A stretch of DNA of 64,000 nucleotides from Methanomassiliicoccaceae archaeon (GTDB lineage Archaea > Thermoplasmatota > Thermoplasmata > Methanomassiliicoccales > Methanomethylophilaceae): contig JAEEJP010000010.1 in assembly GCA_016281925.1 (NCBI GenBank), positions 29,050-93,049 of the forward strand, read 5' to 3'. This document shows, piece by piece, positions 38,333 to 49,394 of this stretch. Position 1 is the stretch's first letter. Every line of letters begins with the position of its first letter. The notes below the pieces were generated by a model. It was not told where the DNA came from and did not search any database. It saw only the letters and a program-made list of their open reading frames with translations. Both the position numbers and the translations under genes were made by a program.

Positions 38333-39517
38333 TTAAGATTCCTTGTATTCTATCGTCCTGTTCAATGGCACCACAGTGGTTCCGTTGCTCAGATCCTTGG
38401 CTACAGTGGCTCCGGCGGCTATCTTGCAGTTGTTGCCAACAACGATATTGCCGACCAATACAGCCCCGGCCCCGATGAATACTCCGTCGCCGATTTTAGG
38501 CGCTCCGTAGCGTTTATGGCCCTTCATCTTATTGGATCCGATCGTCACCTGCTGGAATATGGTGCATTTTTTTCCTATCACCGCAGAATTGCTGATGAAA
38601 ATGGAAATGATCCCGTGAGGAAAAATAGGGGTCGCAGATATTACAGAGTTGATGCCGATCCAGCTTCCGCGCCTCTCTAAAACATTGTAGTAGAGGCTGA
38701 GCATCATTTTTTTGTCGGCGGGGAGGAGGGAACCGTTTTTTATAGCCTTCCTCAGCCTGAATATATACTCCACCGACCAAGTTATCCTTTCACCGATAAG
38801 CATCGACTTTTCAAACAATTCATATGATTTGCAAATATCACGGGGAACTACATCGCCGTCATAATAGAATTCCGATAATAAGAAAATACATCTCGGCGAC
38901 TGGATGCTGTTACATAGCATAAAAGATTCACGGCGGTCGTTGATATCCGTGCTTTTGAAAAGAATGTTTGCAAGCGGCGCCACCGCCTCGCTTACTCCTG
39001 ATTTGACTGCGGCCCTCAGCAAGATCGCTGCTTTGCCGGCATCCTTCTTGATCACTTTGCCTTCCGCATACATCGTGCCGAGCCTGTATTGGATCCCATT
39101 GTTTCCGGCAGCCTCCAAAGACCTGCATATTTCAAAGGCGCGTATCTTCTCGTTTTGATTTCTGCTTGAATACAGCTCATCGATCAACAGAATCGACGCA
39201 TCTTCGTTCCCGGCTTCCGACGCCTTGACCAGAAGGTCGATGGCTTTCTTTCTGTTGCGAGGGACCATTGAACCGTCCAAATACCATCCAGCGAGAACGA
39301 ACTGAAAAGCAGGCTTACCTTCCTGTGCTAATTCGGTGCACAATTCGACCGCTTTCGATCTGCTTTCCTCGTCCCCTGATGCATAAGCATTGATCAGAGA
39401 TAACAAAGATGCCTCGTTACCACAGATACTGTTCTCTAAAAACAATAAACTACTATCCATTCTCGACATACCTCTTGGCTTTTTCGATCCAATCGATTGA
39501 TAGCACTTCGTCTCCAA
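38333..39517 (-). CDS. Sel1-like repeat protein fused to a serine-acetyltransferase-like left-handed beta-helix
   Basis: N-terminal Sel1/TPR-like repeats (FQFVLAGWYLDGSMVPRNRKKAIDLLVKAS); C-terminal KIGDGVFIGAGAVLVGNIVVGNNCKIAAGATVAKDLSNGTTVVPLN. Confidence 0.75.
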   Translation of the reverse strand: METKCYQSIGSKKPRGMSRMDSSLLFLENSICGNEASLLSLINAYASGDEESRSKAVELCTELAQEGKPAFQFVLAGWYLDGSMVPRNRKKAIDLLVKASEAGNEDASILLIDELYSSRNQNEKIRAFEICRSLEAAGNNGIQYRLGTMYAEGKVIKKDAGKAAILLRAAVKSGVSEAVAPLANILFKSTDINDRRESFMLCNSIQSPRCIFLLSEFYYDGDVVPRDICKSYELFEKSMLIGERITWSVEYIFRLRKAIKNGSLLPADKKMMLSLYYNVLERRGSWIGINSVISATPIFPHGIISIFISNSAVIGKKCTIFQQVTIGSNKMKGHKRYGAPKIGDGVFIGAGAVLVGNIVVGNNCKIAAGATVAKDLSNGTTVVPLNRTIEYKES

Positions 39518-39599: not shown

Positions 39600-40994
39600 A
39601 TGTCCAAAGGGACGCTGACGATAAGCTCTGCAAGAGTGCATGACGAAGGAGACAGGACTGTCCAGGAAGCCGATATAACAATATCCTTGAAGAATAAAGA
39701 AGGCGGGAAGGACATCGAAACCCACACGCTGATCTACAGCGTCCCGATCAAGTACGGATACGGCCTGTGCACGGACCTTTCGGATGCGTACGTAATAGCA
39801 TTCCTGAACCACTGCATGAGAAAAGATCTGGACATCGTAGCCGAATCCCCAATCAGCAGCCACCTTTACCACAACATAACGGAATACATCATTCCCGCTC
39901 TTGTCCATGAGGATAGACACTTCAAGACGATAAAAATCAACGCTCCCATAATGGAAGACAGCCAGATACGCTCTGGAGAGCACGTAGGCACCGGGATGTC
40001 CTGCGGAGTGGACTCGCTGCATTCCCTCTGGCATTATCTCAATTACGAAGACAGCAGCCGCAGGCTGACCCACCTGTGCATAACCGACGTCGGAGCCTTC
40101 AATGCATGCTACGGGAGCGAGAAAAGAATTGAACTGGTCAAAAAGACTGCGTATGACCGTGCGAGAGCGGCGTCGGAGAGCGTGAATCTCCCTCTGATTG
40201 AAATCGAATGCAACATTACCCATGTGATCCCCCAGAACCATAAGTTTACGCATACCTTCACGGACATGTTCTCCGTGATGATGATGAGATACTTCTGGAG
40301 AATTTATTACTACGGATCGGCGGGCAACGGAAGATTGGCTCTCGAGCTGGAAGGCAGCAGCACGCAATACTCCGGGCACTACGACATGTTCACCCTTCCC
40401 CTGATATCCGACGGCAAGCTGGACATCTATTCCGAAGGATTCCTTTCCAACCGCTACCAGAAATTGAAGGACATTTAGAATACCCCTTATGCTCAGAAAT
40501 ACCTTTATTCATGCACGAAGAAGAAGAACAACTGCGGATGCTGCAACAAATGCCTCAGGAACCTCTGGAATCTGGATGCACTCGGATGCCTCGATTCCTT
40601 CCGCGGATCATTCGACATCGACGCGTACAGGAAAGAGCGCAGAGGATATATGGTCAAACTGGTCAGCACGGTCGGATCCAGGAAGCTGTTCCTCGAAGAT
40701 GCGTCCAGAATCTTCTCTGAAAATAAGGATCCCGATTATCTGTATGCCTTGGACGAAGTAAAAAAAATCGATGCTGCCGTATCCGACTACCAGGAAGGCA
40801 GGAACCTGAAGGACTGCTACAAGATATTCGAAAAGAACAGGCACTACAGCATCCTGGCCAGGATATACTACGCCAAAGCCAAGATTGAAGGCAAAGGGAC
40901 CGACGCAGACGAAGAGCTCGGCAACAGGATCCTGAGAACCACAGAGGTCAGATCGTTCCTGAGAGAGAATCGTTCCGAATTAAAGTCAGTATGA
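39600..40994 (+). CDS. PP-loop (QueC-like/adenine-nucleotide alpha-hydrolase-like) protein, copy A, with in-frame TAG at 40476-40478
   Basis: GMSCGVDSLHSLWHYL PP-loop-like motif; C-terminal CTKKKNNCGCCNKC. ORFs 39600..40478 and 40650..40994 share one frame and align end-to-end with 41426..42832. Confidence 0.75.
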
Positions 40995-41425: not shown

Positions 41426-42832
41426 ATGTCCAAAGGGACGCTGACGATAAGCTCCGCAAGAGTTCATGACGAAGGAGACAGGACTGTCCAGGAAGCCGAC
41501 ATAACCATATTTTTGAAAAAGAAAAATGGCGGAGAGGATACCGAAACCCACACGCTGATCTACAGCGTCCCGATTAAGTACGGATACGGCCTGTGCACGG
41601 ACCTTTCGGATGCGTACGTAATAGCATTCCTGAACCACTGCATGAGAAAAGATCTGGACATCGTAGCCGAATCCCCAATCAGCAGCCACCTTTACCACAA
41701 CATAACAGAATACATCATTCCCGCTCTTGTCCATGAGGATAGACACTTCAAGACGATAAAAATCAACGCTCCCATAATGGAAGACAGCCAGATACGCTCC
41801 GGGGAACATGTGGGTACAGGCATGTCCTGCGGAGTGGACTCGCTGCATTCCCTCTGGCATTATCTCAATTACGAAGACAGCAGCCGCAGGCTGACCCACC
41901 TGTGCATAACCGATGTGGGAGCGTTCAATGCATGCTATGGAAGCGAAAAAAGGATCGAAATAGTCAAACAAACGGCATACGAACGCGCGAGAACAGCTTC
42001 AAAAAGCGTCGGTCTCCCCCTCATTGAGATCGAATGCAACATTACTCATGTGCTCCCCCAGAACCACAAGTTTACTCATACTTTCACAGATCTGTTCTCC
42101 ATTATGATGATGAGATACTTCTGGAAGATCTATTATTATGGTTCTGCAGGCAACGGAAGATTGGCGCTCGAACTGGAAGGCAGCTGCACACAGTATTCCG
42201 GCCATTACGACATGTTCACCCTGCCTCTGGTATCCGACGGTAAACTGGACATTTTCTCCGAAGGATTCCTATCCAACCGCTACCAGAAACTGAAAGACAT
42301 AAAAGACGCCCCGTTCGCCCATAAATACCTGTATTCATGCACAAAAAGTAAGAACAACTGCGGGTGCTGCAATAAATGCCTCAGGAACCTCTGGAATCTG
42401 GATGCTCTTGGATGCCTTGATTCATTCCGCGAATCGTTTGACATCGATGCCTACAGGAAAAAACGCAAAGAGTATATGGTCAAACTGGTCAGCACGGTCG
42501 GATCCAGGAAGCTGTTCCTCGAAGATGCGTCCAGAATCTTCTCCGACAACAAAGATCCGGACTACCTGTATGCCTTGAACGAAGTGAAAGAGATCAATTC
42601 CGCGGTATCCGACTACCAGAAAGACAAGAACCTGAAGAATTGTTTCAAGATATTCGAAAAGAATATGAATTACAGCACTCTGGCCTTAATCTATTACGCC
42701 AAAGCCAAGATTGAAGGCAAAGGGACCGACGCAGACGAAGAGCTCGGATCAAAGATCATGAGAACCGCCGAAGTCAGATCATATCTCAGAGACAGCTGTT
42801 CCGACGAAGGTTCGGAACGAAGCTATACATAA
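41426..42832 (+). CDS. PP-loop (QueC-like) protein, copy B, intact paralog
   Basis: GMSCGVDSLHSLWHYL; CTKSKNNCGCCNKC metal-binding cluster; near-identical to copy A over long stretches. Confidence 0.8.
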   Translation: MSKGTLTISSARVHDEGDRTVQEADITIFLKKKNGGEDTETHTLIYSVPIKYGYGLCTDLSDAYVIAFLNHCMRKDLDIVAESPISSHLYHNITEYIIPALVHEDRHFKTIKINAPIMEDSQIRSGEHVGTGMSCGVDSLHSLWHYLNYEDSSRRLTHLCITDVGAFNACYGSEKRIEIVKQTAYERARTASKSVGLPLIEIECNITHVLPQNHKFTHTFTDLFSIMMMRYFWKIYYYGSAGNGRLALELEGSCTQYSGHYDMFTLPLVSDGKLDIFSEGFLSNRYQKLKDIKDAPFAHKYLYSCTKSKNNCGCCNKCLRNLWNLDALGCLDSFRESFDIDAYRKKRKEYMVKLVSTVGSRKLFLEDASRIFSDNKDPDYLYALNEVKEINSAVSDYQKDKNLKNCFKIFEKNMNYSTLALIYYAKAKIEGKGTDADEELGSKIMRTAEVRSYLRDSCSDEGSERSYT

Positions 42833-48053: not shown

Positions 48054-49394
48054 ATGGAATCATCAGGCAAGTTCGTCGTCATTGCCGTCTGCATCGCATC
48101 TTTCCTCTCCAGCTGCTGGGTCATGGCAGTTTATGTCGCCCCGCTGGGCGGATGGATGACCGCGGTGCCTGCGGCGGCAGGGCAGATCATAGCCCTGTAC
48201 ATATTGAAAATCCTTCTGGATACCATAAAATTCGATGCCTTCCGCCTCACGTTCGCGGCATTCGATCGCCGCGCATATCTGTTTCTCACCTTAGGGATCG
48301 TCCAGATTTTCATAGAAACCGTCTCCAGCTTCGCGAAAAAGATGGAGGAATGGCAGTTCTACGGAGCCGCGATCGAGCTTCTGCTTCTGCTGCCGTTTCT
48401 CCTGTCGATGGCCGGCCTCGCTCTGATCATGGCCTTCTCCGTAGCATATCTGCTTGCCGCGATGCTGATTTACCTGATGCTGCTGGCTCTTGCCTATCTG
48501 GCAGACACTGCCAGGTATGAGATACGCACCGGGCGCTGCGTATGCCCGAATTGCCTCGCCATATTCAGGCGCCCCATCTATCTGTGCTACTGCGGCCAGG
48601 AATACCCCTCCGGCTCCACCGCCAGCCTGCGCCCTTCCATCCACGGACTGAAGAGGATGAATTGCGGGCATTGCATCTATTCTGTTCCGGTGGACAGAAA
48701 CAGACGCTTCTTGGATGCGATCTGTCCCGAATGCCGCTCCGCGATATCTACCTAGGAAGGGCGCCCCTCCTTAATCACTCTGGCCGGGGCTTCAGGCTCC
48801 GGAAAGACTGCCTTCGCCTTCTCTGCCATGGAAGCCCTGGAAAACAGCGGGAAGACGTGCTACCCTTACGGAAACGCATACAGCCCCGGCACGCCCGAAG
48901 AAAACAGCCGCCCTTATGTCATCAGCGCCGAAATCCGCAGATACGAATTCCATTACCTGGTCATTTTCGACGTGAACGGATCGTATTTCACCGGCAGGGC
49001 CGGCATAGACCGGCAGCCCCAGTACGGCCGGGAGGACGTTATCATCATCACTGTGAACCCTTGCGCGCCGGACGCCGCCATGAAAGATGAGATGGCGATG
49101 AACGGGTTCTGGCAGAAATACCACGCCGTGACGCAGACATCCCTGTCCGAAGACATACGCGTGCCGCTCCATCTGGTGGTAACCCACGGGGACATATTAG
49201 GAAACCGCCCGGACATCAGAGGATATCTCATATCGGAAGGATACGGCCGGATGATATCCTCTCTGGAAAGCAATTTCCGCAGCGTGACCTATCATATGTG
49301 CGACGCCAGAGACCATAGGGAAGCGGCGGCCGTGCTCTCCGAAGCTCTGCGCAGGAAAGACAGAAGCCTAGCGCTCGCGTTCCGGAAAGTCTGA
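48054..49394 (+). CDS. Membrane-anchored double Zn-ribbon + P-loop GTPase-like protein, copy A, with in-frame TAG at 48753-48755
   Basis: TM helices; CVCPNCLAIF..CYCGQEYP...CGHC...CPEC; after TAG the frame continues EGRPSLITLAGASGSGKTAFAFSAMEALENSG into ORF 48828..49394; full-length paralog at 49528..50862. Confidence 0.75.

What the first reader, a model, noticed from the sequence alone, without database searches (positions are those of the whole stretch)
40440..40994. In-frame UAG in the first of two tandem PP-loop paralogs, aligned with Lys in the second
Copy A reads ...RYQKLKDI-TAG-NTPYAQKYLYSCTKKKNNCGCCNKCLRNLWNLDALGC..., and copy B reads ...RYQKLKDI-K-DAPFAHKYLYSCTKSKNNCGCCNKCLRNLWNLDALGC.... 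The frame is preserved to a TGA at 40992-40994, and the downstream region is still coding-like. The amber sits where the paralog has Lys, and it precedes the Cys cluster, so termination would delete a probable metal site. A preserved post-TAG reading frame argues for readthrough rather than a decayed pseudogene.
Basis: partly seen in the sequence, partly recalled or inferred. Interest (0 to 1): 0.85.

Follow-up and report, generated by a model that had tools for sequence, protein, structure and literature searches.

The report
Pyrrolysine codon in archaeal PP-loop paralog
[quoted passage not shown] following it up showed that the same organisms also carry such a codon in an essential RNA polymerase gene.

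Summary
Copy A (39600-40994 +) has an in-frame TAG at 40476-40478 (codon 293). Tandem copy B (41426-42832) and both copies in the nearest species have Lys there. The frame stays open to a TGA at 40992-40994.

Its genome has PylS, tRNA-Pyl(CUA), PylD, a PylB fragment and two MtmB genes with TAG. It belongs to the Methanomassiliicoccales, in a clade with rumen Methanomethylophilaceae MAGs. TAG is depleted as a terminator, and many sampled genes carry an in-frame TAG followed by coding sequence.

The region after the TAG in copy A is under purifying selection (A/B dN/dS 0.17; 0.09 over the first 100 codons) and holds all four invariant Cys of the family.

Best reading: TAG is translated as pyrrolysine, a near-neutral Lys-to-Pyl replacement at a variable site. 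Papers on Ca. M. alvus and ISO4-H5 list 16 and about 40 comparable genes, so this is a new member of a known kind.

The stronger by-product is RNA polymerase subunit A'': TAG at one identical column in all seven species of a subclade, where 17 of 19 other congeners have Lys. Termination there would remove the conserved part of an essential protein.

The parts
39600..40994 (+). Copy A: 464-residue PP-loop-like protein when TAG is read as Pyl
   Evidence: 89% identical to copy B
40476..40478 (+). In-frame TAG (codon 293), predicted pyrrolysine
   Evidence: Lys in copy B and in both copies of G098, Ser/Ala in most distant paralogs
39993..40016 (+). GMSCGVDS motif (residues 132-139), resembling the PP-loop ATP-pyrophosphatase signature
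   Evidence: sequence; D138 invariant, G132, G136, V137, S139 nearly so in 26 homologues
40512..40553 (+). Cys cluster C305-x6-C312-x2-C315-x2-C318, probable metal site, downstream of the TAG
   Evidence: all four Cys invariant in 26 homologues
40479..40994 (+). Post-TAG coding region of copy A, under purifying selection
   Evidence: A/B dN/dS 0.168 overall, 0.091 in the first 100 codons; coding score +37 to +39
41426..42832 (+). Copy B: uninterrupted tandem paralog, AAA (Lys) at 42302-42304
38333..39517 (-). Divergent neighbour: Sel1 repeats plus hexapeptide acyltransferase; in related genomes this module is fused to the C-terminus of PP-loop homologues
   Evidence: Pfam; fused proteins in L040/L041; syntenic in G098

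Best explanation
The UAG in copy A is decoded by tRNA-Pyl(CUA), charged by PylS, so the full 464-residue protein is made with pyrrolysine at position 293 in place of Lys. The organism is a Pyl-encoding methylotrophic methanogen of the Methanomassiliicoccales in which UAG has largely become a sense codon. An AAG-to-TAG mutation in a paralog is therefore a tolerated Lys-to-Pyl substitution rather than a nonsense mutation. Shown here: the intact frame, purifying selection after the TAG, the Pyl machinery in the same genome, depletion of TAG terminators and many other in-frame TAGs, including one in an essential gene. Inferred: actual incorporation of Pyl at this codon, its efficiency, and that the substitution is nearly neutral (the site is Lys/Ser/Ala in homologues and lies in a loop between two predicted helices).
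For: The genome encodes PylS over the curated cut-off, tRNA-Pyl with anticodon CUA, PylD over the cut-off, a PylB-like fragment at a contig end next to pylS, and two MtmB genes with in-frame TAG. TAG ends 27 of 270 called ORFs in a 357-kb sample against a 21.5% share among stop triplets, and about half of those 27 are followed by in-frame coding sequence. The PylS-containing relatives G007 and G098 have 1/80 and 2/73; G016, which has no PylS over the cut-off, has 16/72 (22.2%) against 22.1% expected (tests). In-frame TAGs interrupt Pfam families in one frame: TP_methylase, MtmB and others. RpoA2 has TAG at the same column in seven species, with post-TAG dN/dS about 0.05. In copy A itself, post-TAG dN/dS is 0.168, and 0.091 in the first 100 codons; the uninterrupted G098 pair has 0.405 and 0.297 for the same segments. 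Derived residues A:B after the TAG are 13:7 against 8:2 before it (Fisher p 0.67). Copies in the nearest species have Lys (AAG, AAA) at the site.
Against: There is no proteomics or expression data, so Pyl at this codon is inferred. The TAG is known from one MAG (86% complete) and reads could not be inspected. Some genes still seem to end at TAG, for example TruD with only 17 further codons, so UAG termination probably persists and decoding may be partial. A paralog could have lost its function recently, too recently for the A/B dN/dS to show it. No stable RNA structure follows the TAG (z = +1.3), although such an element is reported not to be obligatory (cited in PMC4153887).
Confidence: 0.88

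Rival explanations
1. Copy A is a freshly inactivated duplicate: the TAG terminates translation, copy B supplies the function, and the downstream frame has simply not decayed yet.
For: A functional paralog lies next door, and a third, degenerate copy with three TAGs lies downstream in G098, so copies of this gene may decay. Copy A has somewhat more derived residues than B on both sides of the TAG. A recent event would leave no trace in A/B dN/dS.
Against: The host decodes UAG as Pyl. No frameshift or further stop. Derived changes in the first 100 codons after the TAG are 4 in A and 4 in B. Essential genes in the same genome have in-frame TAG, so a TAG alone does not inactivate a gene here.
Confidence: 0.06
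2. Both products are made: a 292-residue form lacking the Cys cluster and a full-length Pyl form, with the ratio set by pyrrolysine supply (methylamine availability), giving a regulatory switch.
For: Archaeal aRF1 can compete with tRNA-Pyl (general knowledge), and TAG still ends some genes in this genome.
Against: No positive sign of regulation: the TAG position is not conserved in orthologues and paralogs carry TAG elsewhere. The truncated form would lack four invariant Cys. RpoA2 in the same cell needs efficient decoding.
Confidence: 0.04
3. Sequencing or assembly error in the MAG turned AAG into TAG.
For: Single MAG; tandem paralogs are error-prone to assemble; one base separates AAG from TAG.
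Against: The flanking codons differ from copy B, so the site is not a copy-B collapse. Many other in-frame TAGs occur in the genome, and the one in RpoA2 recurs at the same column in independent MAGs.
Confidence: 0.02

Closest known systems
Predicted Pyl-containing proteins outside methylamine methyltransferases in Methanomassiliicoccales (16 in Ca. M. alvus, PMC4153887; 46 amber-containing genes including methyltransferases in ISO4-H5, PMC5011839)
   Same: Same order, same machinery, same pattern: single in-frame TAG in otherwise ordinary genes whose relatives have a sense codon, with few TAG terminators.
   Different: Different gene (a PP-loop-like family absent from the lists seen), and the unusual convenience of an intact tandem paralog with Lys at the same site.
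Pyrrolysine in tRNA-His guanylyltransferase by neutral evolution (Heinemann et al. 2009, cited in PMC4153887; not read here)
   Same: Pyl at a non-catalytic position by chance mutation in a Pyl-decoding archaeon.
   Different: Another lineage and protein; here inferred from sequence only.
Archaeal 'Pyl code', UAG as a full sense codon (Kivenson et al., Science 2025; own knowledge, not in the library, not read here)
   Same: Genome-wide UAG = Pyl with few UAG terminators.
   Different: Here some TAG-terminated genes seem to remain, so completeness of the reassignment is not established.
QueC-type PP-loop enzymes (own knowledge)
   Same: SxGxDS-like loop and a C-terminal CxxC-type four-Cys cluster.
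   Different: No Pfam, NCBIfam, PADLOC or significant PDB match, and no PDB fold match with E at or below 0.001.

Membership tests
Pyl-decoded (amber) gene of a Pyl-encoding archaeon | Host has PylS and a CUA tRNA-Pyl | tested here: met
Pyl-decoded (amber) gene of a Pyl-encoding archaeon | Host can make pyrrolysine (PylB, PylC, PylD) | tested here: inconclusive
   PylD found; PylB-like fragment at a contig end; PylC not searched; MAG is 86% complete
Pyl-decoded (amber) gene of a Pyl-encoding archaeon | Frame continues past TAG with homology to the same family, ending at TGA or TAA | tested here: met
Pyl-decoded (amber) gene of a Pyl-encoding archaeon | Purifying selection after the TAG | tested here: met
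   dN/dS 0.168; 0.091 in the first 100 codons; averages over A and B branches
Pyl-decoded (amber) gene of a Pyl-encoding archaeon | TAG depleted as terminator in the genome | tested here: met
   27/270 TAG-ended ORFs, about half with coding extension, against 21.5% of stop triplets
Pyl-decoded (amber) gene of a Pyl-encoding archaeon | Peptide with the Pyl residue detected | not testable with these tools
   no proteomics
Pseudogene | Frameshifts, further stops or relaxed selection after the TAG | tested here: not met
PP-loop ATPase family (QueC-like) | SGGxDS-type loop | tested here: inconclusive
   SCGVDS, conserved in homologues; no Pfam hit
PP-loop ATPase family (QueC-like) | Structural match to solved PP-loop enzymes | tested here: inconclusive
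   confident model (pLDDT 90.5), but NAD synthetase, LarE and Asn synthetase appear only at E 0.2-0.8
PP-loop ATPase family (QueC-like) | Four-Cys metal cluster | tested here: met
   C305, C312, C315, C318 invariant; metal binding itself not tested

The most novel reading that the evidence does not exclude
In this subclade of gut Methanomassiliicoccales, UAG has become an obligatory sense codon for pyrrolysine: RNA polymerase subunit A'' has carried it since the common ancestor of seven species, and copy A is one of dozens of neutral follow-on cases. Copies A and B would form a natural Pyl/Lys pair at one site. Loss of pyrrolysine supply would then stop transcription itself, not just methylamine use.
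Probability: 0.6. Interest if true: 0.6.

Novelty: new member of a known kind. Interest (0 to 1): 0.42.

Why it matters
For the gene itself, it adds one clear case of a non-methyltransferase protein with pyrrolysine, next to a Lys-containing paralog that serves as a built-in control. For annotation, standard gene calling would cut this and many other genes of the organism at UAG and call them truncated. For biology, the conserved UAG in RNA polymerase A'' implies that the pyrrolysine system in this clade is essential for all growth, which makes the question of how a stop codon becomes irreversibly a sense codon testable by comparison of close relatives.

Tried and rejected
Phage origin: no phage DNA similarity. 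Known defence or protein family: no Pfam, NCBIfam or PADLOC match; PDB sequence search gave only an E 0.24 match; PDB fold search no match at E at or below 0.001. A dedicated recoding RNA structure after the TAG: none, folds worse than shuffles. A conserved Pyl site in this protein family: rejected, since orthologues have Lys, paralogs Ser/Ala, and other members have TAG at other positions. Naming orthologues of the PP-loop gene by the genome collection: none found. An initial guess that the TAG methyltransferase next to pylS was MttB was corrected to MtmB by Pfam.

Full report
What was claimed and whether it is there. This is exact. The ORF from 39600 reaches TAG at 40476-40478 (codon 293) and, with TAG read as a residue, continues to TGA at 40992-40994, giving 464 residues. 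Copy B (41426-42832) is uninterrupted and has AAA at that codon. A and B are 89% identical and colinear.

The host. The window lies in a metagenome-assembled genome of 1.96 Mb in 122 contigs. That genome has a PylS over the curated cut-off. Beside it are a tRNA-Pyl with anticodon CUA, a PylB-like fragment running off the contig end and an MtmB gene with TAG inside the Pfam domain; a second such MtmB lies on another contig. PylD is on a third contig. By its RNA polymerase gene it belongs to a clade with MAGs from sheep omasum, sheep rumen and buffalo rumen titled Candidatus Methanomethylophilaceae. The literature describes exactly this setting. Ca. Methanomethylophilus alvus has 16 predicted Pyl proteins besides the methylamine methyltransferases and only 1.6% TAG stops (PMC4153887). 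ISO4-H5 has 46 amber-containing genes (PMC5011839).

TAG use in the genome. In 357 kb of the genome, 27 of 270 called ORFs of at least 100 aa end in TAG, against 21.5% of all stop triplets being TAG. About half of the 27 are followed by an in-frame stretch that scores as coding and overlaps no other gene. G016, a relative without a PylS over the cut-off, has 22.2% TAG ends with mostly short, non-coding extensions; G018, also without one, has 8.3%; the PylS-bearing G007 and G098 have 1.2% and 2.7%. Several in-frame TAGs lie inside one Pfam domain, such as a TP_methylase (codon 188, domain 5-220) and MtmB. The picture is not perfectly clean: TruD and a few others appear to end naturally at TAG, so a small share of UAG termination probably remains.

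Selection on copy A. Between A and B, dN/dS is 0.061 before and 0.168 after the TAG; over the first 100 codons after it, 0.091. The uninterrupted pair in G098 gives 0.146 and 0.405 for the same segments, so the rise towards the C-terminus is a property of the protein and not of the TAG. Polarised with G098, derived residues A:B are 8:2 before and 13:7 after the TAG (p = 0.67), and 4:4 in the first 100 residues after it. These numbers average over the time since duplication and cannot exclude a very recent TAG, but they show no decay. A stretch near codons 60-120 is almost identical between A and B even at silent sites (dS 0.03), suggesting gene conversion; the TAG lies outside it.

The site. 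Both G098 copies have Lys (AAG, AAA) at the TAG column; more distant paralogs mostly have Ser or Ala. In the predicted structure (mean pLDDT 90.5) residue 293 lies between two helices, 285-292 and 296-301. The four invariant Cys (305, 312, 315, 318) follow it. Other family members in the genus carry TAG at unrelated positions: query position 193 in G094, 222 in G002, and position 40 in both G001 and G094. This pattern fits chance replacement of sense codons under a code in which UAG is sense, not a special role of Pyl in this enzyme. No RNA structure follows the TAG.

A stronger case found on the way. The subunit A'' gene of RNA polymerase in the same genome has TAG at codon 100. The same column is TAG in all seven species of one subclade (G000, G098, G094, G001, G002, G006, G099), and AAG or AAA in 17 and ATG in two of the other 19 congeners aligned. 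The seven group together in a tree of the protein with support 1.0, and named rumen MAGs in a public collection, some of them probably the same genomes, show the same TAG. Post-TAG dN/dS is 0.05 (G000/G098) and 0.06 (G001/G002). Termination at codon 100 would remove the conserved Rpb1 domain 5 part, so UAG must be decoded efficiently in these cells. PylS was found over the cut-off in five of the seven; the two without a hit are MAGs of 61% and 82% completeness. I found no paper in the library that mentions this; the 2025 Science paper on an archaeal Pyl code, which I know of but could not read here, may list it.

What the protein is. It is an unassigned family with a PP-loop-like SCGVDS motif and a four-Cys cluster. 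In G001 and G094 a homologous domain is fused to Sel1 repeats and a hexapeptide acyltransferase, the same module that is encoded divergently at 38333-39517 here, suggesting a joint function. The locus is syntenic but rearranged in G098, between FEN1 and argD.

Verdict. Observation confirmed; interpretation supported and made specific. It is a new member of a known kind. Protein-level proof of Pyl at this codon is missing.

Noticed in passing
L059:17254-18729 (-), own genome contig C1; L095-L097, L123-L125: RNA polymerase subunit A'' has an in-frame TAG at one identical column in all seven species of a subclade, Lys (17) or Met (2) in 19 other congeners; post-TAG dN/dS about 0.05-0.06.
   Followed up: yes
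window 48054-49394 (+): Second in-window gene with in-frame TAG (48753-48755, codon 234); its tandem paralog next to it (contig C29:78580-79905, 45% identical) has none.
   Followed up: partly
L045:14777-16996 (-): Sel1-repeat/DUF6270 protein with TAG at codon 487; a TAG-ended ORF of the same length (486 aa) with a 252-codon coding extension occurs in G098.
   Followed up: partly
L054:12624-13421 (-); L056:3489-4232 (-): TP_methylase-family gene (resembles diphthine synthase) with TAG at codon 188 and an NTP-transferase-like gene with TAG at codon 139.
   Followed up: no
window 38333-39517 (-); L040, L041: Sel1 plus hexapeptide acyltransferase module is separate here but fused to degenerate PP-loop domains in G001 and G094; those fused proteins share a TAG at the same column.
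   Followed up: partly
window 39780-39959 and 41606-41785: Near-identical tract between copies A and B even at silent sites (codons 60-120), suggesting recent gene conversion.
   Followed up: partly
L024:2917-3198: Remnant third copy of the family in G098 with three TAGs in its frame, possibly a decaying copy.
   Followed up: no
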